The notes under the pieces are model-generated. The model saw only the letters and a program-made list of their open reading frames with translations. It was not told the DNA's origin and ran no database searches. Positions 204-52,800 of a DNA stretch of 64,000 nucleotides are shown in pieces. Every line of letters starts with the position of its first letter. The stretch's first letter is position 1. The position numbers and the translations under genes were made by a program. The stretch comes from Telmatactis stephensoni (lineage: Eukaryota > Cnidaria > Anthozoa > Actiniaria > Isophelliidae), in assembly GCA_029948255.1 (NCBI GenBank), contig JALIZF010001507.1, positions 301,586 through 365,585 on the forward strand. The letters are read 5' to 3'.

Positions 204-1370
204 CTAATATGTAACACTTCTTTGAGTTTTAAATTCATAAGCAGCGTGGTCTATAATTACAAAGCATTCCTCATTAGCAAGGCTTCTGCACGACTCCGAG
301 CTATCTAGGTGTTTATATATATGTGACGCCCTATACGAGCGAAGATGTTCACATACGCGTGTCGAAAAGTGGCGAACCGTTTCACCAATATAACAGGCAT
401 TACAGCCTGCACAAACAAACTTATACACGACATGCGAACGCATTCCCATGGGTAAGGGGTCTTTGTTACTAAAATAGCTCTTTATTTTTTGTGAAGTGAA
501 GGCAAGTTTGATATTGATATCTTTGCAATAACGCTTAGTAATTTTCTGAATTCTTTTCTGCGTTACATTGGAAAATTGGCCGATGAATGGTAATTTATAA
601 TAGAAACAGTTAGATTGACTAGCTTGAGAAGTTTTGTTACCATTGTTATCTAGGTTGTTATTAAGATAATTTTTGATCACTTTCTCAATAGTGTTTTTGG
701 GGAAGAGGTTTTTCTTTAGGATATCAACTAGCTTATCTATATTATTATTAAAACCGACCCAAGTATTGTTGATCTTGTAAGCCCTATCCACAAGTGTTCT
801 AATTAATCCTATTTTATAGGAAAAAGATGTAAAACTTAGAAAATTAGTGAATAAGCCTGTGAAAGATTTCTTGCGAAAAACATTCGTGGTCACAGGTCTC
901 GTGCTGTTGTCAATGAATACATCAAGAAAGGAAATTTTGTTGTTAATTTCTCTTTCCATGGTGAACTTGATGTTGGGATGCCTGGAGTTGATGAAATCAA
1001 AAAACACAAGTGCATCTTGTTCACTGTCAAAAATGCAGAATGTATCATCGACATAGCGACGGTAGAATCTTAGAAAATCAAACTTGTTATTAAATTCGTT
1101 CAACCATTTTTCTTCATGATGTCCCATAAAGAGATTGGCTAAAACAGGAGCAAGGGGGGAACCCATAGCTACTCCACGTCAATCTGATCAAAATAATTGC
1201 CATTGCCAACCGCTGTCAGTTTTAAATTGGGATAGCCCTTTCGAATGTAGTCTACCGCTAGATTAATACTTTCTTCGAGAGGAATGTTGGTAAAGAGACT
1301 TTCTACATCGAAAGAGACCATAAAATTGCCAGACACACTCAATTCTTGTATTTCCTTTACAAAGGTAAAC
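204..1370 (-). pseudogene. Penelope-like RT/GIY-YIG polyprotein, left copy (5'-truncated)
   Basis: This is a reverse transcriptase joined to a GIY-YIG endonuclease, the two activities that Penelope-like elements use for copying and target nicking. Reading leftward, RT motif A is seen as FMVSFDVESLFTNIPLEES (about 1300-1245), then GVAMGSPLAP and YVDD in FYRRYVDDTFCIF. The nuclease follows as VYKFVCAGCNACYIGE with downstream STRVCEHL (about 440-340). An extra two bases just before GVAMGSPL (about 1170) shift the frame, a stretch before that point is missing relative to the right copy, and the C-terminus runs out of frame after AAYEFK. A full family member is roughly twice as long. The call is firm; the clade (Neptune-like?) is not. 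Confidence 0.85.
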
Positions 1371-2481
1371 TCAAGTGTTTATTTTCTTTTGCCACTGCTC
1401 AAACTCATTTCCTTTTCAATGGCAATTACTTTGATCAGATTGACGGAGTAGCTATGGGTTCCCCCCTTGCTCCTGTTTTAGCCAATCTCTTTATGGGACA
1501 TCATGAAGAAAAAAGGTTGAACGAATTTAATAACAAGTTTGATTTTCTAAGATTCTACCGTCGCTATGTCGATGATACATTCTGCATTTTTGACAGTGAA
1601 CAAGATGCACTTGTGTTTTTTGATTTCACTCCTCCAGGCATCCCAACATCAAGTTCACCATGGAAAGAGAAATTAACAACAAAATTTCCTTTCTTGATGT
1701 ACTCATTGACAACAGCACGGGGCCTGTGACCACGAATGTTTTTCGCAAGAAATCTTTCACAGGCTTATTCACTAATTTTCTAAGTTTTACATCTTTTTCC
1801 TATAAAATAGGATTAATTAGAACACTTGTGGATAGGGCTTACAAGATCAACAATACTTGGGTCGGTTTTAATAATAATATAAATAAGCTAGTTGATATCC
1901 TAAAGAAAAACCTCTTCCCCAAAAACACTATTGAAAAAGTGATCAAAAATTATCTTAATAACAACCTAGATAACAATGGTAACAAAATTTCTCAAGCTAG
2001 TCAATCTAACTGTTTCTATTATAAATTACCATTCATCGGCCAATTTTCCAATGTAACGCAGAAAAGAATTCAGAAAATTACTAAGCGTTATTGCAAAGAT
2101 ATCAATATCAAACTTGCCTTCACTTCATAAAAAATAAAGAGCTATTTTAGTAACAAAGACCCCTTACCCATGGGAATGCGTTCGCATGTCGTGTATAAGT
2201 TTGTTTGTGCAGGCTGTAATGCCTGTTATATTGGTGAAATGGTTCGCCACTTTTCGACACGCGTACGTGAACATCTTCGCACGGATAGGGCGTCACATAT
2301 ATATAAACACCTAGATAGCTCGGAGTCGTGCAGAAGCCTTGCTAATGAGGAATGCTTTGTAATTATAGACCACGCTGCTGATGAATTTTCTTTAAAACTC
2401 AAAGAAGCTTTACATATTAGTTGGTTGAAACCATCTCTGAACCAACAAGTAAAACATATTAATTTACAATTAATACAATAG
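1346..2481 (+). pseudogene. Penelope-like RT/GIY-YIG polyprotein, right copy (5'-truncated)
   Basis: This is the mirror copy of the left element. It begins within RT (FATAQTHFLFNGNYFDQID), continues through GVAMGSPLAP and YVDD, and ends with the GIY-YIG domain (YKFVCAGCNACYIGE, then STRVREHL) and a complete C-terminus. A one-base deletion near 1630 shifts the frame, and a CAA-to-TAA type nonsense change at about 2128 interrupts the region between RT and nuclease, so it is inactive. It lacks the sequence upstream of RT motif A that the left copy still has; the two are differently truncated and are not simple duplicates. Confidence 0.85.
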
Positions 2482-6603: not shown

Positions 6604-6744
6604 TTCATTATCCCTTGGTGTAATTATTCATGTTTTATGCATATCAATAACCTGTACTGTCTGCAATGCATTTCAATGAAGTTCACAATCTGTTACGAAT
6701 CGTAAACCACCATTTACGAATCGACTCGATTCGTGTGTATTGGA

Positions 6745-8509
6745 CAACCCTCCATATCCTTGACTACTGGCGTCTGAGAAGTGGTGTAATTCAACTGAGC
6801 ATGGTTTACGTTTACCAAAGTCTTGAGGCTTGTAACAACTTTTAACGTGAAGATTCTCCAAGAAGGGTAGGGTAATAATCCATCTTTCCCATCGCCTTTT
6901 TAGGTATTCAGGAACAGGTTCGTCCCAGTCGATATTATCCTTTGTAATCTCTTGTAGAATTTGTTTGCCAGTAAGAACAACAGGAGCTATGAACCCCAAT
7001 GGATCATACACTGAACTAACTGTTGAAAGTATTCCACGTCTTGTCAAGGGCTTGCTTGGAATATCAATCTTAAACTGAAATACGTCATTCTCAATGCTCC
7101 ATTGTACTCCAAGAGCACGTTCAAGTGGAAGGCTGTTTTGTTGCAAGTCGAGCTCCTTGAGACCTTTGGCTCTGTCTTGGGTAGGAATGGATTCTATAAC
7201 TCTCCTTAAATTGGACGTAAGCTTATGAAATCTTAGTCCACCATGTGCACACATCTGTTGGCTTTTCTGTATCATCGCAATAGCTTCGTCTTCTGTAGCG
7301 AAAGACTTTAAACCATCATCTACATAGAAATCATGCGACGTCACAACCAAGTTCCTCTTCATAGTCAGTAGCAATCTTCTTTAAGCCATAATTTGCGCAA
7401 CCAGGGGAGGATTTTGCGCCAAACAAATGTACAGTCATTCGATATTCAGATGAATTTTCGGTGATATTTCCATTCTCCCACCGGAGGAAACGGAAGAAAT
7501 TTCTGTGTTCTTCATCCACTTTGAACTGATGAAACATACCTTCTATATCTCCAATAAGGGCATAATGCTCTTGTCTAAATCTGCATAAGACGCCAACTAG
7601 ATTATTGGTAAGATCTGGACCAGCAAGCAGGTGATCGTTCAGAGATTGTCCCTTAAATTTCGCGCTACAATCGTATACAACTCTCAGCTTTTCGTTTTTT
7701 TTGGGATGGAAAACACCGTGATGTGGTATATACCAGACTTTACCATCTTCGGTTTCTCGTTGAGATTCGGGCACCTTTTCAGCATATCCCTTTGAAATAA
7801 CCTCATCCATAGAACAGGTGTACATACTTTGATACTTGTTATCGTGAGACATTCGTTTCTTTAGATTTTTCAAACGACAAGTGGCCAAATCCTTGTTGTT
7901 TGGCAGGCTTGGGACTTCCTCGCGAAATGGGAGTGGCATCTGATAATGGCTGTCTGGAAGTTGTGCGATCCCTAGGCCTCTATCCATTATCTGTAATAAC
8001 TTCTTATCGTCACAGGAAAGAGGCTCTTCGTTTGTTTTTGCTTCTGAGAAGTCAAGTTCAAACATCTTGTTCACTTGAAGTGGATCAATGACTTCCTTTG
8101 CTGCGATTCGGCACGACAAATAACATGAGGCTTGTGGATTTTCTGCTTGACAGGTCAAAATTCGATGAGATACACCAATGTGATCTTTTTCATTGTTTAC
8201 ATCAGCATCGTCGTTGAACTTTCCCACGATACCCCAACCAAGGTCTGTTCTCAAAGCATATGGACTGTTATCATCACCAGCAATAACTTCTCGAGGGACA
8301 AGAGCACGAGTACAATCAAGGCCAATCAGCAATCCGACATCTATATCTTCATTGTATGGCATAATTTGATCAGCTATGTCTTTCGTGTGTGACCAGAGCT
8401 TGGCTGTTTCTGGGCGAGGAATTTGACTGCGTTGAGCAGGAATTGAAGATCTTGTAAATGTTCTTGGTAACGCGATGGACACTTGACGATTGAAACTGAT
8501 CTTGAACAA
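6745..8509 (-). pseudogene. BEL/Pao RT and peptidase-A17 region
   Basis: This is the Pol part of the BEL element. The upstream piece (8509-7331) contains the typical BEL RT entry KVWYIPHHGVFHP, then VVYDCSAKFKGQSLND and LIGDIEGMFHQFKV (motif A region). A frame break near 7350 leads to the second piece with FYVDDGLKSF (the YVDD catalytic box) and YDPLGFIAPV, the hallmark of the Pao A17 region, then HHFSDASSQGYG at the start of RNase H. RNase H and integrase are lost at about 6748. The family assignment is secure from these motifs; the copy cannot be functional. Confidence 0.85.
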
Positions 8510-11574: not shown

Positions 11575-11887
11575 TCATCGAGTGACATGCTGCATTTCAT
11601 GCGGATTGAAATACCATATTAAATGTGGAGGTGTAACTCCTAAGCAATACGATACTATGGTCTCGACGCCATCTGTTTCATGGTACTGTAACTCGTGTTT
11701 ATTAGATATCATGCCATTTAATTCATTGAAAGATGAATCGTTCGCCGAATTAATTTCTACTTCCACGGAATTATATTTTGAAGATGAAAACCAAGTCTAT
11801 GCAAATGAGGATACGTTACCTGGTATTATTAAGCAGAGAACAAAAGGATTCGCGACAAATATTGATGATGCATTTGAATGTGAATAG
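11536..11887 (+). pseudogene. LINE PHD-like zinc-finger segment
   Basis: After a frame break, the sequence continues as NHRVTCCISCGLKYHIKCGG and SVSWYCNSCLLDIMPFNSL. The C-x2-C, H-x2-C and C-x2-C pairs are spaced as in the PHD fingers found between 2A and APE domains in CR1/L2-like elements. It likely served in nucleic acid or chromatin binding. The frame breaks again near 11860, just before the endonuclease. Confidence 0.65.
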
Positions 11888-14754
11888 TCTTCAGAACAAA
11901 AAAGAAGAGGTTGAATTGTTAATTCATCAGTTCAAAGCACAAGTAATATTCTTAACCGAGACAAAGATCGATGCATCTTATCCAAATAGTCAATTCAGAA
12001 TCAATAACTATCAAATTTACAGGAACGATCGTGCCAAAGGAGGCGGAGGTGTAATGGCATATTTCTCATCTACATTACCCTCTAAAAAATTGAAACTACC
12101 GAGAAACTACAAGACCATTGAGCCACTGGTAATACAGACATCTTTTGGTGGAAAGCATGTGATTGTAATGGGTTTATATCGACCACCGAAAGTAATTGGC
12201 AAGGATTATTACCTACGCTTGGAAGATGAACTCAATGATATCTGCTCTTGGATGTCATTACAAAAACAGTTCATAGTTATAATGGGTGATTTAAACCTTG
12301 ACAGGCTGAGACGAGACCAAAGAGAAGGAAAACTTTTGCATGATATAGAAGAGATACATGGCCTTGAATGTCTGATAACTGAACCGACTAGAGTTACGGA
12401 TAACAGCAGAACTCTCCTGGATGTGATTTTGACGAACAAACCAGAACTGTTTAGAGAGAGCGGAGTGTATAACCCTGTGATCAGTGACCACTGTATGGTT
12501 TATGCAGTGGTAAATGAAAGAGCAATACAGCACAAGAACAACATTGTTAAGGTTCGCAGTTATAAAGATTTGGATGAAGAGAAATTTAAAGAGGATTTGA
12601 GTGTTGCACCCTGGCACGTTGGAGAAATCTTTGATTCTCTTGATGACAGGTATGGATACTGGGATACCCTCCTTAACGACATTGTGAACGAGCATGTGCC
12701 TGCAAAAGATATCAGAAATAGAACAAAGGACGTGCCCTACATGACTAGGGAGTGGAAGAATGCAATAAAAGCCAAGAGGCGATTCTCCAAGAGATTTAGC
12801 AAGAACCCTACACAAGAGAACTATGAGCTAAAAAGGAAATGGCGAAATGAAGCCACCAAACAAAGAAGAGTAGCCATTAAAGCTTATTGGAAGAAAGTAT
12901 CTGACAATATTAAGTCGGACCCGAGGAAGTTCTTCAAGACCTTTACACCGTTTCTTGATGTGAAAAACAAGCAAGGTGATAGACGAGACATTTGTTTAAA
13001 AATTAATGACAAATTGGAAGTGGATCAAGTAAAAGTAGCAGGACATTTAGCTCATTATTTTTCAACAATTGCAGATGGAATTGGCGGAGACAATGCCCAG
13101 AGTTTTGTGGAGGAGGACTTTAAAAATCATAAATCCGTTAAAGATATCTCAAGGACTTTGAGAGTCAATAATAATGATCAATTTCAATTCACGGCGTTAA
13201 GTAACAAGGAAATACAGGATGTATTGGAGAAGCTTAATCCTACTAAAGCTACAGGCTATGATAAGATCGACCCAAGAATACTTAAGATTGGAGCCAAAGA
13301 ACTGACACTATCATTAGCTCAGATTTTTAACCAGAGTATTAGCAGTGGACTATGGATAACACAGTGGAAACGAGGAGAATGGGTGCCTGTCTACAAAAAA
13401 GATGATAGACAGGAGGATAAGAACTATAGGCCTATAACTGTGTTACTCTGTGTAAATAAAGTATATGAGAAGTTGATGGGTGGACAGATCTCTGAGTTTA
13501 TGGATGGACACTTTAATGAAGCTATCACTGCCTATCGTCCTCAGAATAGCTGTGAAACCACTTTGCTGAGACTAGTCGAGAATTGGAAAGAAGAGCTTGA
13601 CTGTAAGAAGTCCGTTGGAGTCTTATCCTCGGACATGAGTAAGGCGTTCGATTCATTGTGTCCGCCCTTATTGATCAACAAGCTTCAAGCTTATAATTTC
13701 TCTGGAAATGCTATCAACTTGATCAGATCATACTTTGATCATAGAGAGAACAGAGTAAAGATTGGGACTGCAACAAGTGATTGGAAGATTATGACAAAGG
13801 GTTAGCCGCAGGGCTCTACATTTGGACCACTCATGTGGAACATTTTTCAGAACTGATCTGCCAAGGCAAGTTGTTGAGGCAAGTATATCTATGTATGCCG
13901 ATGATCACCAAATCTACGTGGCCAGTGAATCGAGCAAGGTGGTGGAGGAAAAGCTCATTGAAAATGGACAGAGGATGACTAAGTGGTATGAGGACAATAT
14001 GTTACAAGTGAACTATGATAAATATCAATGTATGCTATTAGGAAATAGGAATAAGGAAACAACAATTGATATAAGTATAGAAGGGGAAAAAATACAACAA
14101 TCCCAGTCAATTAAAATATTAGGTGTTCACTTGGACGAGCAATTAAATTTTAGTTATCATGTAAGTGAGATATGCAAAAGGGTTAGTAAGCAAGTGGGGG
14201 TACTGTATAGATTGAGAAATCTTATACCATCTAATGCCAAGTTGTATCTGTATAAATCATCAATTATGCCTCATCTAACGTATTGCCACCTTGTGTGGCA
14301 TTTTTCTCGTGTATCTGATAGGCGTAAATTAGAAAGATTACAAGAGAGGGCATTACGAGCAGTTTTTAATAATACCTCTGATAGTTATGGTACATTACTT
14401 AAGAAGGCTAAGTTAACTACATTATATGATAGGAGGTTACAGGATATTCTTATATTAATGTTTAAGGTGAAAAATGGATTAACTCCAAAGTATATTAGAG
14501 ATTTATTTCAAATTAATAATGTGATAAATAATAGATACAATTTAAGAAATTCAGACTTTTGTCTGCCTCGATATAATACTGTAGCTTATGGAAGACACTC
14601 CATTAAATTTTTAGGTCCATTATTATGGGCTAAATTAACCAAAGAAGAAAGAAATATAAAAACTTTGTCAGCTTTTAAGACTGCAATTAGAAAAAAGGAT
14701 ATATCAGCTGTGATTGAAGGATGTGGTAGGGATTGCTATTTATGTCAGAATTAA
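11850..14754 (+). pseudogene. LINE APE endonuclease and reverse transcriptase
   Basis: The endonuclease runs from MHLNVNSLQNKKEEVE through FLTETKID, GVMAYFSS, VMGLYRPP, IVIMGDLNLD and SDHCMVY, retaining the expected catalytic residues of the AP-endonuclease fold. RT follows with WVPVYKKDDRQEDKNYRPI, VLSSDMSKAFDSL (motif A) and, after the break, SMYADDHQIYV (YADD). The C-terminal thumb is typical of CR1/L2 (SIMPHLTYCHLVW, LERLQERALRAVFN). An in-frame TAG at 13803 sits just before PQGSTFGPL, and one extra base near 13853 shifts the frame before YADD. Last codon at 14754. Confidence 0.85.
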
Positions 14755-27852: not shown

Positions 27853-28171
27853 TCATTCATGATCACTTGTTGCTTCGACTTCGTTGTTATCGGATGGGTT
27901 GAGAGGAGTACGGCATTCTTTACAGCATTGATCTATACAGAGATCGTCTGTACTTTTAACATATTTGACGATGGGGCGTTTGGGATCAGACGTCTTAGCT
28001 CGTAAGAAGCGGCGAAGAAGGCAAATGATGAAGACCAGTATGGCGATGTTGATAACAGCGAAGGTGAGTGCAACACAAGCGATAATATGGGTTGTCGTTG
28101 TCTCTGTGGTGTCTTTAATTGAAGCAATATCGTCCGTAATCATCTGTATCTTTGTGTTTAAAGGTCCATCT
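27853..28171 (-). pseudogene. Env C-terminal part: membrane anchor and tail
   Basis: The open frame reads MITDDIASIKDTTETTTTHI, then a strongly hydrophobic stretch (IACVALTFAVINIAILVF) and a basic start of the tail (CLLRRFLRAK), ending at 27853. This is the transmembrane anchor and cytoplasmic tail of the envelope protein whose ectodomain lies at 32767-34526. The hAT element sits between the two parts. The reading register on both sides of the insert is the same, supporting a simple insertion. Confidence 0.8.
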
Positions 28172-28541
28172 CATGGACGGCGGAAGCAAAAAATTATTGG
28201 GGGGGCACTGTGAAAATTGTAAAATTTCGGATTTTTAGCAGCCCCCCCCCCTATCGCACCCTGATTTTTCAGTTATTAGACATAAGTACCATTGGCATGC
28301 TAGTGTTTTATTTTATGTTTTTTACATTCCCTCAATGACTAGTAGTTTTTTACAAAATCATAAATTTACTAGTTTCATTACTTGCGTCATTACTTTGTTT
28401 ACAATTTTCCAAATACTATTTCCGGAAACAATACAACTGGATCACTTTATATGGGATAGTTAAGTGATGCCTGCCCTTCACTAGGAAAGATCGATTTGGA
28501 GAAACTCAACGAACAAATTGGTGGCTGTAGGTGGGCAAAAA

Positions 28542-30820
28542 TCAAAATTTTCCAAAAAAAGACTTCCTTCTTTCATTAACTCCAGCAAAGTCTTGACCAA
28601 TTTGGGTAAGGCTCAGCTCATCTGTTCTATGCTTGTGCGCATAAAGCAGGAGCAAGTTATTGAGCCTTTCTTGCGTCATCGTACTTCTAAGCCATGTCTT
28701 AACTCGCCGGAGAGCAGAAAATGACCTCTTAGCTGTTGCTGTTGTCACAGGAATGGTAAGGTAAATCTGAGTTAGCCTGGCTACCTCGCTGAACAACTTC
28801 TTTGTGACTTGAGAAGTATTTAGAACATCGCAAATTGTCCTTATTGATGTTACTTCTTTAATGTTATCTGTAGATGCTGCAATAACATCTGAAAACATTT
28901 TCAGCTGACACTCCAGACGGCTTTGATTGATGTCAGCCGAATAGGTCTTAGTGATGGTTTCTGGGATGCTGAAAAATTTGCCATTGGCAGCCTTTAAAAG
29001 CATGTTTTCCAAGTCACATACTACTTGGAAGTCCTCCTGCTCAAATCGCCTCTCTAGCTGGTTGTCCACAAGTTCCAGAGCCTCAAAAAACTCCTGCCGA
29101 TGTAAATCTTTCGGTGACTGAAATCTGTGGGGTTCTTGTCCATTGTCAAGTCGTCTTGGCCTCTTTCTATAACGAGGAAGGGTTGGTTCAATGTTAAGTA
29201 ACGCGGCTTGCCGAACAGCATCGTCATAAACTGCAGTAAACTCATCCTCAGATCGAAGCCTTTTGTAATAATTCCTGGCTCCTTTACAGGCTTTTTGCGC
29301 CTCCTGCACGGATGTATCTTTGCCTTGGAGGCTAACAGACAGCTGCTCAGCAGCGCTAAAGATAACATGCGAGAGTTTGAGTCCCCACAATGTTTGAAAG
29401 TTATCCATGAGTGAAGCAATGCCTCCCGCTGCTATCCCATTATCGTCACGCTGATGCTTGTTTATTTCTATCATAGTTTCTTGCAGGATAGAGTAGTTCT
29501 TGAGAATTGCATCTATGGCCCCTGTTCTCACAGTCCACCTAGTAGGACATAAGGGCTTGATACCTCTGGCAACCGTGGATTCTTCACCTGATACTAGGTG
29601 ACCTGATGCATCCATCTGATTCTTAGTGAACATCACCTCATGTTTAGGAGAGAATTTTATTAATCGGGAAATTTCTCGTGCAAGATCTAATGCATCCCTG
29701 ATGGCCTTAATGTCTCTGCAAGTGTCCTGAAGAACTAGGTTAACACAGTGTCCCAAGCAATGGACTCTCAGTGCAGCTTGCTGTTCTTCCTTGAATCTTT
29801 TGGCGACCCCAGTAACTTTCCCAAACATATTTGAGGCACCATCGTATCCTTGCCCTCTACATAGTTCAATAGGAAGGGAACATCTCAAAAGCACATCTTT
29901 TATGACTGCAAACAGTGTGGCAGCTGTGGTCTCTGGAACTTGAAACAAACCTATCGGTTCTTCATATACATTGAAATCGCCATCCACCCATCGTAAACAG
30001 ATGACGAGCTGTTCGTTGTTACTCCGGTCTCTTGTTTCATCTGCCAGGACGGCATAGAAACCAGCAACCTTAACTTCTTCAATCAGCTTTCTCAAAAGGG
30101 TGTTACCCATTAGTTTTACAATTTCATTTATGATGTCATGTGACATATATGTGCCATTTTGAAGCCATTCCTTAAGGTTTGGTTGTTCCGAGATACGGAG
30201 TTTCAGCAGTTGGTAAAGGTTTCCCTCTTGCTCGACATTGCCACGAAGAGCCAGGCCTTGCCTCGCCAAGAAGCAAACAGATGACAGTAAAGTCAGAAGC
30301 AGTTCTCGATTTTTCTTCTGCTCGTTTTGCCGCTGAGTAGTCAGTTTTGCCGCGATGTCTGGTTCTTTTGAAGACAGAATAGCCAGTTTGGCTATTGCTT
30401 CCTTGTGACACGCACTTGATTCATGCTCTTTGAACCTACCCATAGCCTTTTTCCAGTTGCAGAAACCAGTACTTATGAATGCTTGCTCCATTTTTGCACT
30501 AAATGTGAGCAATCCGTTCCTCTTAGCTTTCATACAATCGGTGCAAAATGCTTTATACGTCGTACTGCATAGGGTCAGCCATTCGAATGATTTGTACCAT
30601 TCTTTTCTAAAATACCGCTTTTTTAGTTGCTTTCCATGCCCATATTCTTTGATGGTTCGTGTTAAGGTTTCTTCATCCTCTGGTCGGTAGCTTTGTAATT
30701 GACAGCATTGACATGTGCAACTTGGATTTGTGTTGGACTCTTGCTCGGATTCACTCCCACTTTCCTCTCCAAGTGCTGGCTCACTTGTATTTCCTAATAG
30801 CAAATGATTCAACACAAGCT
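28542..30820 (-). CDS. hAT transposase (TTF-type zinc finger, ZMYM1-like)
   Basis: An open frame of about 757 codons without breaks. An acidic, Ser-rich N-terminus with a CTCQCC motif is followed by a TTF-type zinc-finger region (about residues 75-145, FCTDCMKAKRNG...ESSACHKEAI), a DUF4371-like part, the RNase H-like core (VLADETRDRS, then GQGYDGASNMFG) and the hAT C-terminal dimerisation region (TTATAKRSFSALRRVK, QERLNNLLLL). Similar proteins are often annotated as zinc finger MYM-type 1-like. No ATG lies near the N-terminus; the frame opens just after TTTTAG, a possible splice acceptor at about 30822, so the first exon is probably upstream and was not found. The frame ends at 28542. It would cut and join DNA at the element ends in the nucleus. 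Looks intact. Confidence 0.85.
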
Positions 30821-31033
30821 AAAATGAGCTATGGGCTTTTCGACTGACAAATCAATTTTATTCAGAATATTTAACAGTAAAATAACAGTAGTATTTCTTT
30901 ACGATAAGTTATAGTTATAATTCAAACACTAAAATTCAATCATTAAATTTAAGTGATATGTTTGTTGTTGTTTTTTTTTTCAGATGACCTATTTTGTTAC
31001 ATGAAAATGGCTACAATATAAGCCCAGAGTAAA

Positions 31034-32324
31034 CTAGTTATCATTTCTGAGTAACTTCCACTCCTCAATACTGCGACTCTCTAGTTCTGGTGACAAGATG
31101 AGACTTTTGATATTAGGAAGAAAGTTAATTAAAGCTAATACACCATCTTCATTCATTACACTTGTAAAACTAACATCTAATGTTTCGATTGAAGGGTGTG
31201 CCGCAACAATTTGTAAAATATCCCAAAAAGTAAACTGGTTACACCATCTTATATTTAGGTGCTTAATATTAGGGCAAAGATATTCATCAGACAGGATAAC
31301 AGTTGAGGATTCACGGTCAATATTTATGCACCATTCAATGGACAATAACTTAAGCTTATGTAGTTTAGCCAGAAATGGAACGCTGATTATTGCAAAATTA
31401 GAAGTTAGATCAAGTTCTTCTAAGTTTGAGCATAAAGAGAGCTTGTCGTACAAATATTCAATTGAAACTTCCGATAGAAGAGGTTCAAAGTTGCCATTTA
31501 AGTATAAATGTTTGAATTGCTGTGCATGAACAAATATGGCATCTAGAGTAGATTTCTTGTAACTGATCAAGCCACAGTCGTCTACACTTCCAAATGATCT
31601 CCACATGATATTACTGTTTAATAAATGGTAGAAGCGTTTGCACACTCTCGATAACGGAAGAACATCTCGGATACGGATATACCGCAATATGTATAATAAG
31701 ATTTCTTCTGGAAGATCTAGAATAGCAAGTTCACCAGAGCTTGTGTCAGCCTGAGAATTATATTCGTCTAGGAAAACAATAAAGCACCATTTGTGTCAAT
31801 GAATTAAATCAAAAGCCAGTTTATACTGGCTGAATTAAGTTGAGGTGAGCTCCCAGTGACAAAAGATTACCTATGCCCCTAGATCATCACACATTCCTGA
31901 GTGGGAACTACTGAAATATCTCAATTATTGTTTCAAAGCAGTCAAAGAAACTGAATGAATGATACTGTGTCATAAAAAATATGTTTTCCATATATAATCG
32001 TCAATCCTGTCGGTCTATAACTATAGAAAAAACGGCTGGTAAAGCTCAATCTTTCTGTAAGCTTACTTTTAATGATTAAGCTTAACTAACAGGAAAAAAA
32101 TAGTCGCCTCGAATAAAACATGACTAAACATCAAAGCCACAGCCAAAAAGAATAACCACTTGACATTTTATGATCGAAGCACAAATAAATTGTCGAAAAT
32201 GCACATTTAAAAGACTTGCTTTACTAAGTTTACTTGACTTACCTGGAGCTAGTGTTTCTTCACTAACTGAATCACTTGCAGTGTTTTTACTGAAAGACAT
32301 TGAATTTTCAATTACAGTTTGCAT
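31034..32324 (-). CDS. Two-exon F-box/LRR protein carried by the hAT element
   Basis: Exon 1 runs from ATG at 32324 to 32243 (MQTVIENSMSFSKNTA...) and ends at a perfect donor, CTCCAG|GTAAGT. Exon 2 runs from 31767, after TTGTTTTCCTAG, to the stop at 31034. The two join in frame to about 271 residues. Residues about 45-80 form an F-box (LPEEILLYILRY, LPLSRVCKRFYHLL). Leucine-rich repeats follow (LCSNLEELDLTSN, LHKLKLLSIEWC, CPNIKHLNIRWC, HPSIETLDVSFT, LPNIKSLILSP). F-box/LRR proteins are substrate receptors of SCF ubiquitin ligases. The gene lies inside the transposon ends and shares the transposase's orientation, so it appears to be cargo. I see no disabling change. Expression is unproven. 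Confidence 0.75.
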
Positions 32325-32766
32325 TGAAGATTTCCAAAACACTCTCAAAAGAATAACAAAATAAATAGATCAATATATATACGGTAAAAATAAATGTACC
32401 TTTGAAAAAATGTCTTTATAGACCGCTGCATTTTTAACCTTTGAAATTGGTGGACAACACGGGACAGATTGCACATAAAACTTTGGGCCCTTTGGGCGCG
32501 CATGCACAACAACTGACTCCGATCCAGGCTCCAATAAGATGCCAACACACAGGCAACCCCGTCCAGAAAGACGATTAAATAGTGAATAGTCAGATTATCA
32601 AAATATTTGAAATAATTCGAGCGATAAAATTATTACAAATTAACTATTCTATTCAAACGTTAATATTGATAGCCAGAAAATTATTGGGGGGGCCAGGCCC
32701 CCCCAAAAAAATTATTGGGGGGGCCAGTGCCCCCCCTGCCCCCCCGGTTCCGCCGTCCATGCATCT

Positions 32767-34526
32767 ATGCGATTAAACGTCTCGTCGAGAGCTTTTATGG
32801 TGCTTTTGTTGAAATGGAGGCGTGGTCCAATCTTGAGAGACTTGTAATGGAGGTTCAGGATGGGTTTATTTGTGGGAACTATCCATGGAACATAGCGGAT
32901 AATTCGTCGATTAAATATTGGAATAGACATTGTAAGCGTGGAAGGACATTGGCCAAAACCAGTGGGTAGGACTGACGATGTCTCGTTACATGGTATGCTG
33001 TAAACAGAAAGCGCACTCATGGAGAGAGTTCGTGTGGAAAGTCTGATACGTTGTTGCATAGTGGACAGGAAGAAACGTCCTCCAAGATGAATCAATGGTT
33101 GGAAATCAGTGCATTTGGTCTTAACATGATTGCGTGGAAAGTTGTAATGGGCTCCTGGAGTCCACGGCATACCAATCCAAGTACTATCGTGGTTGTTCGT
33201 CAGAATGGCATCGGGACACAGGTATGTTCCTTCTTTGCTAGTATAACATTTTGTTAGTACATCAGCCTTGAGAACAAGTTTTTGCTTAGGACAAGTAATT
33301 AAAATAAGATCATGATAAGCAATTGGACTAGTAAAACAGTGATGGGTTTGTTGATATTTGATTGGAGTAAGAGATTCAATTGTACACAATGCAGTTCGTG
33401 ACTTGATTATAGGAATAGTAGTCACAGTATGTAATTGAATATGTTTATCGCGATGTTGATATTCAGTAACAGGCTTAATTAGGAGAGGGAATCCGTCCTC
33501 TAGAATAGCCGAAGAAAAGTCAAGTTCATTTTGTGCCTTAAAATTAGTAGAAATAGCAGAAATAACAGACTGTGGTAAATCATTGTAGCCAATTAGTTCT
33601 TTGTTTTGGATATGAGCAAATTGAGTGACAATGTCTTGAATTTCAACAAATCGTAATAGTGAGTTAAAGATTTTATTACTTGCATGAGAAAATTTTGAAA
33701 GAAATTCCATGTTGGCATTAAAATGACATTGATCTTTTTGTGCAAATTTATTAAGTTGTTTTTGCCAAGTAACTAAAATTGAATCAAAATGCTTCATGTG
33801 GTCACTTAAGTGGTTCACTCGAGAGGTCAATTGGTCTGTAAGTTTAATAATTTGAACAGTTTTTCCATTTACTGTGCGAATCAAGGAGGCTTCATCTTGA
33901 AGTGTATCCGTGATATCTCGTAGTGTTTTCTTCAAATTAGAGACATGATTTGGCTCACAACTACCTCCAAAAGCTGAATATACTGCTCTGATTAGTCCAA
34001 AAATTCCCGAATGGCATGCCCAAGCTGCGCGCTTGGCTCGAGCATGTGTTTTAAGCCAAATTCGTTCATTTGCACTAATGCCGGTACATTTTTTCAAAGC
34101 CCAGCGTTTACATTCCTGGAGTGATGGACGATAAGTGTGAGGACAAATCATGTGAGAAGGCAAACGTGTTTGAGCGGTATAATAATTACTTAAGTAGGAA
34201 TTGCATTCAATCAGGTGCGAAAAGCCTGGTAATGAAGATAATCGTCTTATGTTTTCACTTGTTTTACGAAATGATTGGAGTAATTTTGTCATAAAATTTT
34301 TCTGTTCGATTGAGCAAAATGTTTTGATTGTTTGCATTCGCCCTAGCGGAACATTTTGGAGTGTCAATGTCAAACGAATTACTTGCGTATCATGATAAAG
34401 AAAAAGCGGGCGCGGGTTAGAGGCCAATGTCAGCGAAGATGGATAGTAGGTTACAGTTTTGCCGTTAGCATCAAAATTCGTATTAGCCGTTATGAGAGGA
34501 ATAAAAAGGGTAACTAGAAGGTACAT
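32767..34526 (-). pseudogene. Env-like fusion glycoprotein ectodomain of the Gypsy provirus (interrupted)
   Basis: The start is ATG at 34526 with a signal peptide (MYLLVTLFIPLITA). A furin-type site RAKR at about residues 163-166 is followed by a Gly/Ala-rich hydrophobic stretch (SGIFGLIRAVYSAFGG) typical of a fusion peptide. After it comes a long helical region with coiled-coil character (residues about 190-300) and many paired cysteines. This layout matches the F-like envelope proteins of errantivirus-type Metaviridae. Coding ends at the hAT insertion; the last codons before a stop at 32712 come from the transposon end. The anchor is at 27853-28171. In a whole element it would mediate membrane entry. 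Confidence 0.85.
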
Positions 34527-34652
34527 CTTGGGTTGGATTGATCACTGCAAAGAAAAGAAAAATGAATGTAGGTGTTATGTAGGCTGAGTGAGACTTAAAT
34601 AAAATTCTATGCCAAAGATAAAAACTAAAAATCACTAAAGATGTCGATTTAC

Positions 34653-35219
34653 TTAGCCTGGTCGATAACGGACATTTTCTGGCACAGGTCTCGGATTAGC
34701 GATATAGTATTGTCGTATTCGCTCCATTTCCTCGGCCCATCCAGGGGGTGGTGGGGGGTGTCTATATTCCGGTACATGGAAATGCGGCTCTCTGCGGGGC
34801 TGACCTGCCACGTCATCCCATTCCTCATCATCGAAAACAAAATTGTTTTCATTGATGTGGATGGGGTTATGACCCCCTCCTGGCTGCCTAAAAATGTGGT
34901 GGTGTACCGGCATGAAGGTAATATGACGGAACCCGATGGAGATGGCGCCAGGTCTCATGGGTGGCCCAAAAGGCTCATCCACATTATAGGGCGCCAAGGC
35001 CTGCCGGCAAAAGGGGCATTTGTAGTCGCCAGGAATGAAGGCGTGGTTGAAAGTCTGTTCTAAACAACTCTCATGGATTCGTTTGCGGCAACACGGTGCT
35101 CCGATTGAAGGCTCATCGCTTTGTTCAAAGCAGATGAAGCAGTGTCTGCGGAGGAACTCCTCCATTCTCCTCTGATCGCGAGCATAATTCTTGCGACGGG
35201 GTTTGTTTTGGTTCGACAT
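34653..35219 (-). CDS. RING-finger protein between Pol and Env of the Gypsy provirus
   Basis: A complete frame of 188 codons from ATG at 35219 to 34653. A Lys/Arg-rich N-terminus precedes a RING-type finger at residues 27-71: CFIC, CC at 43-44, H49, C52 (IHESCLEQ), then CPFC at 68-71. Spacing around the third and fourth ligands is not fully standard. The C-terminal half is His/Pro-rich and acidic (HHHIFRQPGGGHNP, PPPPPGWAEEM). It sits 212 bp after the Pol stop and 126 bp before the Env start, in the same orientation. RING proteins usually act as E3 ubiquitin ligases; its role here is unknown. No break is seen. Confidence 0.8.
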   Translation of the reverse strand: MSNQNKPRRKNYARDQRRMEEFLRRHCFICFEQSDEPSIGAPCCRKRIHESCLEQTFNHAFIPGDYKCPFCRQALAPYNVDEPFGPPMRPGAISIGFRHITFMPVHHHIFRQPGGGHNPIHINENNFVFDDEEWDDVAGQPRREPHFHVPEYRHPPPPPGWAEEMERIRQYYIANPRPVPENVRYRPG

Positions 35220-46281: not shown

Positions 46282-47804
46282 GTGCCTCGTGCAACTCGGA
46301 GAACGCAGATTTTCACAGACAGCGAATCAGAAACTGAATCGCTTGGTAAATCTTGTAAAAAGAAATCAAAATTCACTTCTAATTCCAAAATTTTGAAATC
46401 AAAATCGAAAGTTGGATCAAAATTTTCAAAACGCGAATTGAAATCACAATCTGATGTAAAATCACTTTGTAAATCTTGCAAATCAAAATCAATTAAATCT
46501 ACTTCAAAATCTATTCAATCTGAAATTCAATCGAAAATGCCTACAGGTCAGCCTAGTAGTTCTAGTTCTTCAAACTCGGCAGAAATGGAAACATTAACTA
46601 ACAGATTTTCCCAAATACTACAGGAATCATTTGAAGGCATGAGAGAAAATATGCGCGCGATAAATGATCAACACTCGCAATCAATTTCGACATTAAAAAC
46701 GACTGTACAGGAAATACGACCCAAGAAGGGACCTCTGGAGGATTCTCTGGAGAAGGCGAAGACGCAAATAGCTTTTTGGAAAAATTCGAAATGTATGGAA
46801 AATTCCACAATTGGTCTGACGAGGAATATCGTCAAGCTTTTCCTTTATCGCTGACAGGTTCTGCTGAAGTGTGGTACTCCACTTTAGACAAGACCGCAAT
46901 TACTACTTTTGATCAATTGACGAAACAATTTAGAGACAGATTTCTTTCAGCAACCTCAAATTGGGTATTACGTCAACAATTAGGGCAAAGGAAACAACGC
47001 CCCACTGAATCACTTGATGAATACGCTACTGATATTAGGAAACGCTGCCAGCGATTGGATATCCCAATTGGCGAGCAATTACATTATTTTATACAGGGCC
47101 TTCGCCCAGAATTAAGAAATTATGTAATTTTACAGCAGCCAAAAACACTTGAGGAGGCAGAAAACGCTGCCAGAATCAAAGATTCTCTTGCTGAGTCACC
47201 TAGTAGTAATTTAACGGCAAGTGATGTTTTGGCCTTACAAAAGAGTTTCATTCAAGAACTCGAAGAAAAGAAATTACTTTCTAAACCTAGTGTCGCCGCT
47301 TATCAGCAGAACCCTAGTGCTACAGAGAAAAGCAATGACGATATTAGGCGTATGATTCGCGAAGAATTGCGCTCTGGTATGGGTAGCATCTCTCGTGGGG
47401 CCCCTCCCCCTCGCCTACAGTTTAATTCCCGTGGTGATTTTGGTAGAGCAAATAGGACCACCAACGGACAGGTCATATGTAGCAACTGCAAAAGAGTGGG
47501 TCATCATTTTCGAAATTGCCGTTCACGACCTTTCAGACAAAATGATTATCGATCAAACAGCTACAGATCAAACGATTACAGACAATATGAATTTAGACCT
47601 AATGGTTTCAGATCAACTGGATTTAGACCTCATGATTTCGGGACAAACGAATTTAGGCCAAATGATTTTAGCGCAAATGGATTTAGCCCTAACACCGGAT
47701 TTCAACAGAATGACCCTAGGATACCGATTACTCCACAAAACCCCAGGGGTGGTTTCGTTCGCTCCCCAGGGCGCACCTCTCAGCAGGGTAACCAGTCAAA
47801 CTAG
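46282..47804 (+). pseudogene. Gypsy Gag (frameshifted)
   Basis: The first part is a Ser/Lys-rich frame open from 46282 whose first ATG is at 46537 (MPTGQPSSSSSSNSAEMETL). The capsid part is in another frame: FHNWSDEEYRQAFPLSLTG, WYSTLDKTAITTFDQLTKQF and FIQGLRPELRNYVILQ, as in the retrotransposon Gag domain. A zinc knuckle follows (CSNCKRVGHHFRNC) and then short tandem repeats of the type R-S/P-N-x-Y/F-R. The switch between frames lies around 46700-46760 and looks like a one-base indel, though programmed shifting cannot be excluded. Gag stops at 47804; Pol starts separately at 47849. Confidence 0.85.
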
Positions 47805-47848
47805 AGGGGGTTCCTCAACACCGGGAGATTGGTGGAACCCTACCGAGT

Positions 47849-49888
47849 ATGACAAATAATGAAACCCAGACTGACGACAACAGACCGATACAAAACACTA
47901 ACACAGAATTACTTAATCCGATTACGAATATTAACGAAAACACTTCTTCAGACAATCACGACAATTTACCAGCTACTTCACGAATTGGTTTCCCGGACAA
48001 TTCAACAATTAATACCATTGGTACACAAACAGAAACTGATTTGACTGATACAAATCCTAGCAACAATGTGACAGATGATTTGCCCGTTTATAGTAGCGAA
48101 GATAATACATTCATTTCTGATCTACCTTTCATGAACGAAGATACAATTGAAAACAATAGTATTGGTTTTTGCACTGCGGATGTTCTAAGTTCGCCTGTTC
48201 TATCTATACCTAAGTACATTAGTTCTGTTTGCATGAATGACAATAATACCTTGGAGCGACCATCGGTTAGCACTGTCAGTTTACAAACGAAAATAGAACA
48301 TTTAGACAGACCCAATGAAGATATAGCACATTTAAGGTTTTTGAAATGCATTATTCCAGTGCGAGTTAGTACCATTATCTCTGATTTGACAAAACATATT
48401 CCAAAGAAAGTTATTGCACATAATACAAAAGACATTTCGCAAAGTTCCTTAGTTGTAAAGAGAGACACTCTGAGGACGTATTTTCATGATAATAGCAATA
48501 TTTCAAGTTCTAGTAGTATTTTACAAAAGAGTTTAAAATTTATTCGTGCAACTCCGGAAACTACTTCAGACATTATAAGCAAAGCAATTCAATTTAGTTC
48601 AAGAGATTCAAATATTAGTGTGCAAGGTTCAAGTATTTTACCAGAGGTCACAGAGTCCTCTGTGACACATGAAATTGATGAAAACAGTCAAAGCAATTTT
48701 AACTCGAGCGATCAAGTACAATTTGGTGACAAAGAAGATAGTCCTTTGGAAGATGTAAATGCTATTCATTTTTCACCTACAACCTCAAATCTTTCTATTT
48801 TTGGGTCTTTGTACAATGTAGTTACTAGATTTTTAATTGACACTGGCGCTGCAGTTTCAGCAATCAGTGCTCAAGTTTTTGAACAGTTGCCTGATCACAG
48901 CAAAGCTACACTTTCTCGTGATAAATCAAATGCATTAAGATCCGTAAGCGGAGAGGATATTCCTATTTTAGGTCATCTTAAATTACCATTTTCAATTGAT
49001 GACAAGCTTTATTGGTTCAAGGTTTTTGTCGCCCAACATCTCAGCTATGACGTCATTTTAGGCAAAGACTTTTTGGAACATTTTAATGCTGTCATTGATT
49101 TGAAAAGTAATACACTGACATTGCCTGAGGGAGTTGCCTCTCGCTCAAAACCTACTACTGCTACACAAATTTTAGATCAATGCACTGTCCATCTGTCCGA
49201 AACCACAATTTTGCCACCCTTGAGTGAGACAATTTTGGTTGCGGAACTAAATAGGCCTTTCGATCCAGGTATTACAGGTATTCTAGAACCTAAGCGTGCA
49301 TTGTCAGAACGGTATAATGTTTGTGGTGCTGTAATTTTGGCTATTGTTTCTGATTCACATACTGTGCCTATTAGGTTGTTAAATCCAACAGCATCAGCTA
49401 TAACTTTATACGAAAATACAAATCTAGGACTTTTTAGTAAGTTAGGTGATCCAACTATTGCTGCAATGTTCGACAATATAAACAATGATGATATTAACGA
49501 GACTAAGCCAACTAGCACTCGGGGAAACCCACTTCCATTTGACCTGTCGGAGTCCGAATTGTTAGACGAACAGAAAACAAAATTACTGCAATTACTAAAC
49601 AAATATAGAGATGTTTTTGCTGAGTCAACCAGTGACCTCGGTCGCACTTCTATAGTGAAACATACTATTGATACTGGGAATTCTGCACCAATTAGACTTC
49701 GTCCCTATCGTGTTTCGGACCAGCAGCGCGAAACTATTTCCAAGCATGTAGATGACATGCTTGAGAGGGGGGTTATTCAGCCATCAGTCAGCCCTTGGGC
49801 AGCCCCTGTTGTTCTGGTCAAAAAGAAGGATGGGACAGATAGATTTTGTGTAGACTACCGCCGACTAAATGACGTCACTAAGACATAC
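47849..49888 (+). pseudogene. Gypsy Pol, 5' half: linker, protease, RT start
   Basis: ATG at 47849 opens a long frame. Its first ~320 residues are Asn/Ser/Thr-rich without a known fold. An aspartic protease follows with [12 protein letters not shown] (about residue 329) and [11 protein letters not shown]. The RT start is seen as [39 protein letters not shown] and [18 protein letters not shown]. At 49889 the frame enters T2, and the codons to 50014 belong to T2. The missing remainder of RT continues at 38076, except for about 50 residues found on neither side. Confidence 0.9.
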
Positions 49889-52800
49889 TTGTCCAAAATA
49901 GACGACCTGATACGGGCGGTAAATCAAGTTTTACCGTCGGTACAGGTGGTGAAGGTAATTTATATGCAAAGCAATCACATTAATATTCACAAACTTGAAT
50001 CAATTATATTATAGAACTGTTCACATATGATAAACTGGTCACCCTTTGGTATTACGTGCATAAATTATAAGTTCAAGCATGGCTCGCTGAATCCTTTACC
50101 GGCGGTACGGCCCGTACCGTTCGTGCATGAATTATAATTACATATACCATACAAGAAATTCAAGCTCAAAACCTGCTTCATGGCCACTGCTACAAGTTCA
50201 CATTGGAGCCTTCACATTTTTATTTCGTCGTTTTCAAAAACAAAAACAAAAACAAATAATAATAATACCGATCGGCTAGCAGTCATTCGGTACGTTGCGT
50301 TCCAGATCAAATGTTTACATTTGTGAACTCTCCATGATTACATTCCTGACCAAATTCGCTACTTAACAAACACTAAATGCTTTGCTTATTTCTTAGGCTA
50401 TGAGTTTGGTATTTGTAAAGACCCCAGATGATTATTCTACTAAAAAATACTCGCTTAAAAGAACTGCTATAAAGTTGTGAGATATTTATTTGTGATTTGT
50501 CGTTCTCAAAAACACGCACTTCAATTCATGAGTGTATTTGTGAATACGCCGTTTTCAAAAAGCAAAGAAGCCAGATAATTATGTTTTCTTTGTGATTTGT
50601 CGTTCTCAAAAAATCCGATCGCATTTGTGAATATGCCTTTTTCAAAAAGAAAAGAAGCCAGATAATTATGCTGTGAGATTTATCAGTGTGATTTGTCGTT
50701 CTCAAAAAATCCGATCGGACTAAACGCACTTTTATTCATGTTTGTATTTGTGAATACGCCGTTTCCAAAGAGCAAAGAAGCCAGATCAATATGCTACTAA
50801 AGAGGTACACGCTTAAAAGAACTGCTAAAGACTGTGAGATGTTTATATTTGTGATCCGTCGTTTTCAAAAAATCCCACCGGACTACACGCACTTTTGGAA
50901 ACTTACATAAATTACCAGATTAAAGTCTCGATTGGGATTTTGACAATAGGCTACAAGGAAGCCAACAAAGTAGATACTGCTCTTTAACATATAAAGAATT
51001 TTTTTATCAATTATCATTTTGTTAAACATTACACACACATACATATATAGTAATGGGGTGAACATTTCCTACACTTAAAAAAGATAAAATAAGGTATTTA
51101 CAAATAAATTTACAAAAGAGGGGGCATGCAACATTGGCTTCAAAAAAGGTATTTAAAAAAGTCAAAGGTGTCAATGAGACAACTCATGAATACTGCACAA
51201 AACCAATGAGTTAACAGCAAAAGTGAATGAAAAAAGCATACAGTAACTCTAGGACCAACACCTGTCCTTACCTCAGTTACTTTGCAGGACAAGCTCTTAG
51301 TGCCCGCCAGCCTCAGAGAGGTGTCCAAACTAGCTAGTCTCATTCAAGACAATATTGGGCCATCTAAAAGGAAGTGCTCAAAGCAGGCTGGAGAATTTGT
51401 GTAATAAGCTATTCAGTTACACAATATTTTATGCCATTAAGAAAGTGATAGCAATAACCCACACAATAACTTAATACTCCTTCAAATGGTGTATGAGCGA
51501 ATCAAAAAGGTATCCAAAAAATGGTATTCAAATTTCCAAAATTCATCGCTGTTTTCTGTGAAAGAGCAATACCATTATGCAAAAGTGAATGGAAGGATAG
51601 GGCTATATTTTACTGAGTATTCAGGGGCATATCCAAGGGGGGAGGGGGGTCCCAGGGTGCCTGTGACCCCTCTTTCAAAACAAAAAGATTATAGAAATAA
51701 AAGAATCTGACTGGAGAAAGATTGAAAAATTGGAAGTGTGATCCCCCTTTGGTGGCAAATGGAAAGTGTGACCCCCCTTTGAAATATTCTGGATATGCCC
51801 CTGGTATTCTAGTTAAGGGGAACCCAAAAAGTCAGTTGTAAACCTTTAAGGAATTGAAGGGTTAATTCCCTGTGAAAATGACCTTGAAAGTGACTTTTTG
51901 ATGGATGTCCTGAGATTAATTTTTCCAGAATAGGAAAGTTAATTATACCATTTTATACCATTGAAAAAATATCATCAAAAAAGCCATTTTCACATGGAAC
52001 CCTTCAATTGTAAGTGGGAAAGTCATTAAAATCCTTTCAGGACTTAAAACAATTATGGAAATGGAATTGCTTCTTTGGAGCAAAGGAAACAGAATGAATG
52101 ACTGTACCAAGGAATATCTGCATTTATTAGTACAGTAAAAACCCACGTGTAAGAACCAACTTTTTTCAGAGTTTGGCAAAACAGGTTCTTGTATGGGGTA
52201 CTTATTGACAGTTTAGGCTAAGTAGGTTCTTAATTAGGTTGACTTCGTAATAATCTCTACAGAGTAGACATTGTTGTTGATTATCAGAAAATAGTATAAA
52301 ATCTGGTCTGTTCTTCATTATATATATTTATTAATGTACCCATGTTGCCTAAAGTCCAACGACATTAATTGATCAATGATACAGTACTGTATATAAAATG
52401 TATCTTTCCATCAAGAACTGTCAATATGGAAATACTGCTGTAGCAGGTTGTTTTTTTTGGTTAAAAAAAATATAAATCAAATACAGTACTGTAGTTAAAC
52501 CCCACATATAAGAACCTGTTGGAATTTGTTTGCCTAAACAGGTTCTTATATTTTGAGGTATTAAAAAAGCAAATTTCTGCCAGAAGGTTCTTAAATCCCT
52601 AGGTTCTTACACATGGGTATTTACTGTATTTAATACAACCCTTTAATATATCTAAATTTGTGTGCATATATATGGTGCACATTATTTTCTTGTTTGTAGG
52701 GTAATAACCATCTTAAAGTCCACATAACGTCATGTAAAAAGACTGAAGGAAGAAAATAATGAGTTTAATGCATGCACAAAAGAAATTTTTCAAGAACAGT

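What the first reader, a model, noticed from the sequence alone, without database searches (positions are those of the whole stretch)
31034..32324. hAT transposon carrying a spliced, apparently intact F-box/LRR gene
Between the inverted ends and 5-bp duplications of the hAT element lies a two-exon gene with a perfect GTAAGT donor, a pyrimidine-rich acceptor and an in-frame join, encoding an F-box and several leucine-rich repeats. hAT elements usually carry only a transposase. A substrate receptor for SCF ubiquitin ligase as cargo could influence transposase stability or host repression. I know of no described hAT family with this gene.
Basis: partly seen in the sequence, partly recalled or inferred. 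Interest (0 to 1): 0.85.

Follow-up and report, generated by a model that had tools for sequence, protein, structure and literature searches.

The report
Transposon with alternative F-box exon
A cut-and-paste animal-type transposon appears to carry, inside an intron of its transposase gene, an intact exon for an F-box/leucine-rich-repeat protein (a substrate-picking part of a ubiquitin ligase) that could share the transposase's start by alternative splicing; this is unusual cargo, not yet tested by RNA or experiment.

Summary
A 4,590-bp element with a hAT-type transposase (28172-32761) has perfect 14-bp inverted ends, a 5-bp duplication CATCT, DUF4371 and hAT-dimerisation domains, a Hermes-like fold, and an F-box/LRR ORF (F-box-like E 8e-13; best solved relative SKP2, E 3e-9). 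The gene model needs revision. The F-box ORF has no Met before residue 64, inside its F-box, so it needs an upstream exon. The one full-consensus donor (CAG|GTAAGT, 32243) joins in frame to the F-box exon and to the transposase exon. A further predicted 5' exon (32400-32431) encodes MQRSIKTFFQ, a PIP (PCNA-binding) motif; 7 of 67 relatives with long N-termini have a strict match, 0.34 after shuffling. Best reading: the F-box is an alternative last exon of the transposase gene. This copy's transposase has Lys where 115 of 116 ungapped relatives have Glu, the Hermes E572 position, so it is probably dead. A 98%-identical F-box protein exists on 3 contigs whose context was not visible. The whole-genome search did not complete. 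Splicing, expression and function are inferred.

The parts
28172..32761 (.). element with a hAT-type transposase, 4590 bp, coding strand minus
   Evidence: perfect 14-bp TIRs, flanking CATCT
28167..28171 (.). target site duplication CATCT, left
32762..32766 (.). target site duplication CATCT, right
28172..28185 (+). terminal inverted repeat, left
32748..32761 (-). terminal inverted repeat, right
32400..32431 (-). predicted exon 1: MQRSIKTFFQ, PIP-box motif; weak donor AAAG|GTACAT
   Evidence: motif enriched at N-termini of relatives
32243..32289 (-). predicted exon 2, shared linker, ending in the donor CAG|GTAAGT
31034..31767 (-). predicted alternative last exon: F-box and leucine-rich repeats, stop TAG at 31034-31036
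30857..30862 (-). AATAAA between the F-box stop and the transposase acceptor
28542..30793 (-). transposase exon (DUF4371 and Dimer_Tnp_hAT), acceptor CTATTAG|GA
28728..28730 (-). codon of residue 697 of the ORF (Lys here, Glu in 115 of 116 ungapped relatives; aligns to Hermes E572)
28307..28312 (-). AATAAA after the transposase

Best explanation
An element of autonomous layout with a hAT-type transposase acquired an F-box/LRR coding segment in an intron near the 5' end of its transposase gene. One transcription unit starts near the right end; its first two small exons encode a PIP-box N-terminus and a linker. The exon-2 donor is spliced either to the transposase exon (PIP-fronted transposase) or to the F-box exon, which ends in its own stop and poly(A) signal (PIP-fronted F-box/LRR protein). 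The F-box would dock on Skp1/Cul1 and the LRRs would pick a substrate, so the element would encode an SCF substrate receptor regulated together with its transposase. Shown: sequence anatomy, domain matches, reading frames and, for the PIP, enrichment among relatives. Inferred: splicing, poly(A) choice, Skp1 binding, PCNA binding, the substrate and any benefit to the element. This copy probably cannot cut DNA itself, because its transposase has Lys at the catalytic Glu position.
For: F-box and LRR matches. No Met before residue 64 of the F-box ORF, whose F-box spans 25-67, so it needs a donated start. P0001 (98% identical, 189 aa) also begins only at that Met. One donor is in frame with both acceptors; of 44 YAG sites examined between 30700 and 32200, only 5 open 200 or more codons in its phase: 31767, 31716 and 31707 for the F-box, 30793 and 30775 for the transposase, and 31767 ties for the best pyrimidine tract (13 of 15). 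No ATG-to-GT[AG][AG]G alternative 5' exon in the right phase was found in the intron. With exons 1 and 2 the transposase has 91 residues before its W..WL motif; the 67 relatives with 60 or more have a median of 106, range 61-430. Strict PIP motifs in 7 of these 67 versus a shuffle mean of 0.34, 0 of 500 shuffles reaching it. P0008 reads SSFFQKKN where the spliced window reads KTFFQSKN, across the proposed exon 1/2 junction. AATAAA lies between the F-box stop and the transposase acceptor.
Against: No RNA evidence. The exon 1 donor (AAAG|GTACAT) and the transposase acceptor (9 pyrimidines of 15) are weak; a stronger acceptor-like site just upstream (first base 30818) reads only 12 codons in this phase. 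AATAAA also occurs twice inside the transposase exon, 4 times in all on this strand of the element, so its position is weak evidence. 60 of 67 relatives lack the strict PIP motif; a Met-to-PIP match arises in 2.1% of Markov sequences of that length, and one other such site exists in six frames of the window, at 34017. A start at the ATG 32324 would drop the PIP. 8 weak generic ATG..GT alternatives exist in the intron. None of the 120 listed transposase relatives (of 522 found) carries an F-box label, and two distant relatives with some flanking DNA show no F-box among 7 scanned flanking or overlapping ORFs. Linkage of the F-box to the element outside this copy was not shown.
Confidence: 0.55

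Rival explanations
1. Passive capture: a host F-box/LRR coding segment (perhaps from mRNA, since it is open without an intron over 244 codons) was trapped in this lineage of the element and has no role in transposition.
For: No F-box label in any of the 120 listed relatives. F-box GC 0.351 and GC3 0.324 differ from the transposase (0.434 and 0.409). The LRR_4 match is just below its cut-off. That TEs often carry host fragments is recalled knowledge.
Against: The ORF is intact and keeps a frame-compatible splice acceptor, and it differs from P0001 by 3 of 189 residues (P0001 also ends one residue earlier), about the rate of the transposase exon against P0002 (11 of 750); without DNA of other copies this is no test of selection. 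Of 4 short direct-repeat pairs in 30790-32300 none brackets the segment.
Confidence: 0.27
2. Independent gene: the F-box has its own promoter and a 5' exon inside the 475-nt intron or outside the shared exons.
For: 8 weak ATG..GT candidates exist in the intron in the right phase.
Against: None has a GT[AG][AG]G donor; the full-consensus donor lies just upstream.
Confidence: 0.12
3. Assembly chimera or chance ORF.
For: Only one genomic copy could be examined, because the whole-genome search did not complete.
Against: The F-box match is strong; a 98% identical protein was found on 3 contigs; the ORF is longer than each of 2000 random maxima; it lies inside intact TIRs and TSD.
Confidence: 0.04

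Closest known systems
hAT superfamily (Hermes, Ac, Buster, Tip groups)
   Same: Transposase with DUF4371 and hAT dimerisation domain, Hermes-like fold, short TIRs; 4.6 kb is within the 2.5-5 kb given in PMC3942097 (passages read)
   Different: 5-bp instead of the 8-bp duplication given there; extra F-box exon in a transposase intron
OTU-bearing hAT transposases (P0008, P0016; P0087 below cut-off)
   Same: Same transposase type carrying a ubiquitin-system domain
   Different: OTU proteases remove ubiquitin (recalled) and are fused upstream of the transposase; the F-box would recruit a ligase and sits on a separate exon
SKP2 and FBXL2 (F-box/LRR receptors)
   Same: F-box then LRRs; SKP2 is the best PDB match, colinear over residues 27-237
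   Different: The match stops about 100 residues before the end of SKP2; orthology not shown
F-box genes that captured TE domains (Caenorhabditis F-box A2, zebrafish F-box::CxC7; PMC12062965: outline, passages and sections 5 and 12 read)
   Same: F-box and TE sequences combined in one gene
   Different: There a host F-box gene took a TE domain; here an F-box lies inside an element with intact ends
P element transposase/repressor splicing (recalled)
   Same: Alternative splicing giving a second product with the transposase N-terminus
   Different: P element retains an intron to make a truncated repressor; here the second product would have a new domain

Membership tests
hAT superfamily | hAT transposase domains | tested here: met
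   DUF4371 E 7e-23, Dimer_Tnp_hAT E 2e-10; Hermes is the ten best fold matches, best E 2e-9
hAT superfamily | short terminal inverted repeats | tested here: met
   14 bp perfect
hAT superfamily | 8-bp target site duplication | tested here: not met
   5 bp CATCT at both ends. Groups with 5-bp duplications (hAT5) are recalled from Repbase and were found in no call. I therefore call it an element with a hAT-type transposase, not a canonical 8-bp hAT
hAT superfamily | catalytic D, D, E (recalled) | tested here: not met
   In this copy the Glu column (Hermes E572; Glu in 115 of 116 ungapped rows of 120) is Lys; P0002, 13 differences in 757, has Glu. A defect of the copy, not of the family
F-box/LRR (FBXL) proteins | F-box domain | tested here: met
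   48.4 bits against a cut-off of 24.3
F-box/LRR (FBXL) proteins | leucine-rich repeats | tested here: inconclusive
   LRR_4 26.6 bits against 27.0; colinear SKP2 match; the predicted model is of low confidence (pLDDT 48.9)
F-box/LRR (FBXL) proteins | Skp1 binding | not testable with these tools
   needs biochemistry
SKP2 orthologue | C-terminal LRRs and tail that hold Cks1 (recalled) | tested here: not met
   match ends at chain residue 320 of 424 (7b5l_T)
PIP-box protein | Q..[ILM]..[FY][FY] motif (recalled) | tested here: met
   QRSIKTFF in predicted exon 1; PCNA binding not tested

The most novel reading that the evidence does not exclude
One hAT-type gene makes, by alternative last exons, both a PCNA-tethered transposase and a PCNA-tethered SCF substrate receptor, so the element brings its own ubiquitin ligase adaptor to replicating DNA and couples transposition to S phase by degrading a host or transposase protein there; sister lineages reached the ubiquitin system from the other side with OTU deubiquitinases.
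Probability: 0.2. Interest if true: 0.88.

Novelty: new variant of a known kind. Interest (0 to 1): 0.6.

Why it matters
hAT elements are usually taken to encode only a transposase (recalled). A substrate receptor co-expressed with the transposase would be a direct, testable link between a cut-and-paste element and host protein turnover, and the PIP motif at some transposase N-termini suggests that this branch is tied to the replication clamp. In the listings of ten paper searches (titles and starts of abstracts only) I saw no hAT element with an F-box cargo and none with a PIP box; two papers were opened, and the searches cover open-licence papers only.

Tried and rejected
Relatives of the F-box: a protein search at E<=0.001 and the same query again at E<=10 gave only P0001 and, at E 0.28, P0122, of 452 candidates. 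Viral contigs: F-box, transposase and transposase alignment A2 gave no confirmed locus. Genome contigs with A3 gave 2 loci of 35 matched stretches, in MAG contigs titled Poribacteria (probably eukaryotic contamination, inferred), 38% and 42% identical in the best segment. Seven of their flanking or overlapping ORFs of 80 or more codons were scanned and gave no Pfam match; L001 has only 342 bases upstream of the transposase ORF, so it says little. Phages: no match. A structure model of the F-box exon had low confidence (pLDDT 48.9); its two best fold entries were FBXL2 and SKP2, none with E<=0.001, so I give it no weight. A retrocopy origin was looked for: no bracketing direct repeat. SKP2 orthology was left unproven: few FBXL proteins appear among the solved structures listed. 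An intron-against-exon comparison on P0002 (2 of 7 intron residues differ versus 11 of 750 exon residues, Fisher p 0.005) is biased, because one difference is the Met by which the ORF was called; I do not rely on it. A first PIP count with a narrower boundary motif kept 27 relatives with long N-termini, 2 with a strict match anywhere (shuffle mean 0.14) and 1 in the first 60 (mean 0.06); I then widened the boundary motif, which gave the 67.

Full report
What is there. The element spans 28172-32761 (4,590 bp). Its 14-bp ends are exact inverted copies and the only two matches in the window at up to 2 mismatches; CATCT flanks both. hAT elements are described with 8-bp duplications (PMC3942097, passages); 5-bp groups are recalled, not found here. 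The element lies in an env-like ORF (named so by position and look; no Pfam match) of a Gypsy-type retroelement.

Transposase. The ORF 28542-30818 (-) has DUF4371 and Dimer_Tnp_hAT. A model from 20 aligned sequences (pLDDT 82.0) has Hermes as its ten best fold matches and its only ones with E<=0.001. With the 120 listed relatives (of 522 found) aligned, 83 columns filled in 80 or more rows are at least 95% conserved; the window departs at two, residue 393 (His, Arg in 114 of 119) and residue 697 (Lys, Glu in 115 of 116). The profile aligns the second with the Glu of SERTFS in Hermes, which by my reckoning from the chain numbering is E572, recalled as the third catalytic residue. The model is poor just there (residues 692-698 of the modelled piece under 50), so this rests on the sequence alignment. 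This copy is probably inactive. P0002, different at 13 of 757 residues, has Glu there: intact copies exist.

F-box exon. The F-box-like match is strong. The best PDB matches are five SKP2 sequences (E 2.8e-9 to 7.5e-9), then FBXL2 (E 4e-7); the SKP2 match is colinear from F-box to LRRs and stops about 100 residues before the SKP2 end. Only P0001, 3 differences in 189 residues, is a clear relative among the 452 candidates that the word-based search reached.

Gene model. The frame has no Met before residue 64, inside the F-box, so the start must come from another exon. The donor at 32243 (CAG|GTAAGT) is the one full-consensus site among 4 GT[AG]AG sites on that strand of the element; another, AAA|GTAAGC at 32067, lies in the intron. 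The donor is in phase with the F-box exon (first base 31767) and with the transposase exon (30793). Of 44 YAG sites between 30700 and 32200, 5 open at least 200 codons in its phase, three into the F-box and two into the transposase. Upstream, ATG at 32431 opens MQRSIKTFFQ; joined to the acceptor before 32289 this stays in frame. Relatives support this start: of 120, 30 lacked the boundary motif and 23 had under 60 residues before it; of the remaining 67, 7 have a strict PIP motif in the N-terminus (shuffle mean 0.34) and 5 have it within the first 30 residues (shuffle mean 0.06), with 0 of 500 shuffles reaching either count. A relaxed motif gives 11 of 67 in the first 30 (mean 0.56). A first pass with a narrower boundary motif had 2 of 27 (mean 0.14). 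Most of the 67 do not have the strict motif, and a Met-to-PIP match occurs in 2.1% of random sequences of that length, so the motif is supported, not proven.

Mechanism. The layout is that of an alternative last exon: shared 5' exons, a terminal exon with a stop and AATAAA at 30862-30857, then the transposase exon with AATAAA at 28312-28307; AATAAA also occurs twice within the transposase exon. The shared start would put the same PIP peptide on the transposase and on the F-box protein. What the LRRs bind is unknown; candidates are the transposase itself, a host repressor or a replication factor (inference).

Context. Of the 120 listed relatives, 2 bear an OTU label (P0008, P0016); a scan of 10 proteins confirmed both (E 2e-6 and 2e-11) and added P0087 (E 0.001, below its cut-off). 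P0008 stands for 190 members. So relatives of this transposase carry at least two different ubiquitin-system parts. A study of F-box/TE fusions (PMC12062965: outline, passages and sections 5 and 12) describes host F-box genes that captured TE domains, the reverse direction.

Limits. The whole-genome search did not complete, and the DNA collections searched are prokaryotic or viral, so constant linkage of F-box and element, copy number, selection and host identity remain open.

Noticed in passing
34653-35219 (-): RING-type zinc finger ORF (zf-RING_2 E 1.2e-4, 22.7 bits, below its cut-off of 27.3) between the pol and env-like ORFs of a Gypsy-type retroelement
   Followed up: partly
32712-34541 (-) and 27853-28170 (-): env-like ORF (no Pfam match) interrupted by the element; a stretch that looks hydrophobic by eye lies on the far side. 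Not joined.
   Followed up: no
P0008, P0016, P0087: hAT-type transposases with OTU domains upstream of the transposase (P0087 below cut-off)
   Followed up: partly
204-1178 (-) and 1262-2130 (+): Two opposed, similar-looking reverse transcriptase ORFs; RVT_1 E 2e-6, below cut-off, for the first, the second not scanned; the Penelope-like label is recalled
   Followed up: no
6673-7380 (-): Pao retrotransposon peptidase (E 4e-24); the neighbouring ORF 7331-8509 gave no match
   Followed up: no
11754-14754 (+): LINE-like ORFs with endonuclease and reverse transcriptase matches
   Followed up: no
46668-50014 (+): Second Gypsy-like element: gag (E 3e-13) and a protease match below its cut-off
   Followed up: no
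L001, L002: hAT-type transposase ORFs in contigs titled Poribacteria MAGs, probably eukaryotic contamination
   Followed up: partly
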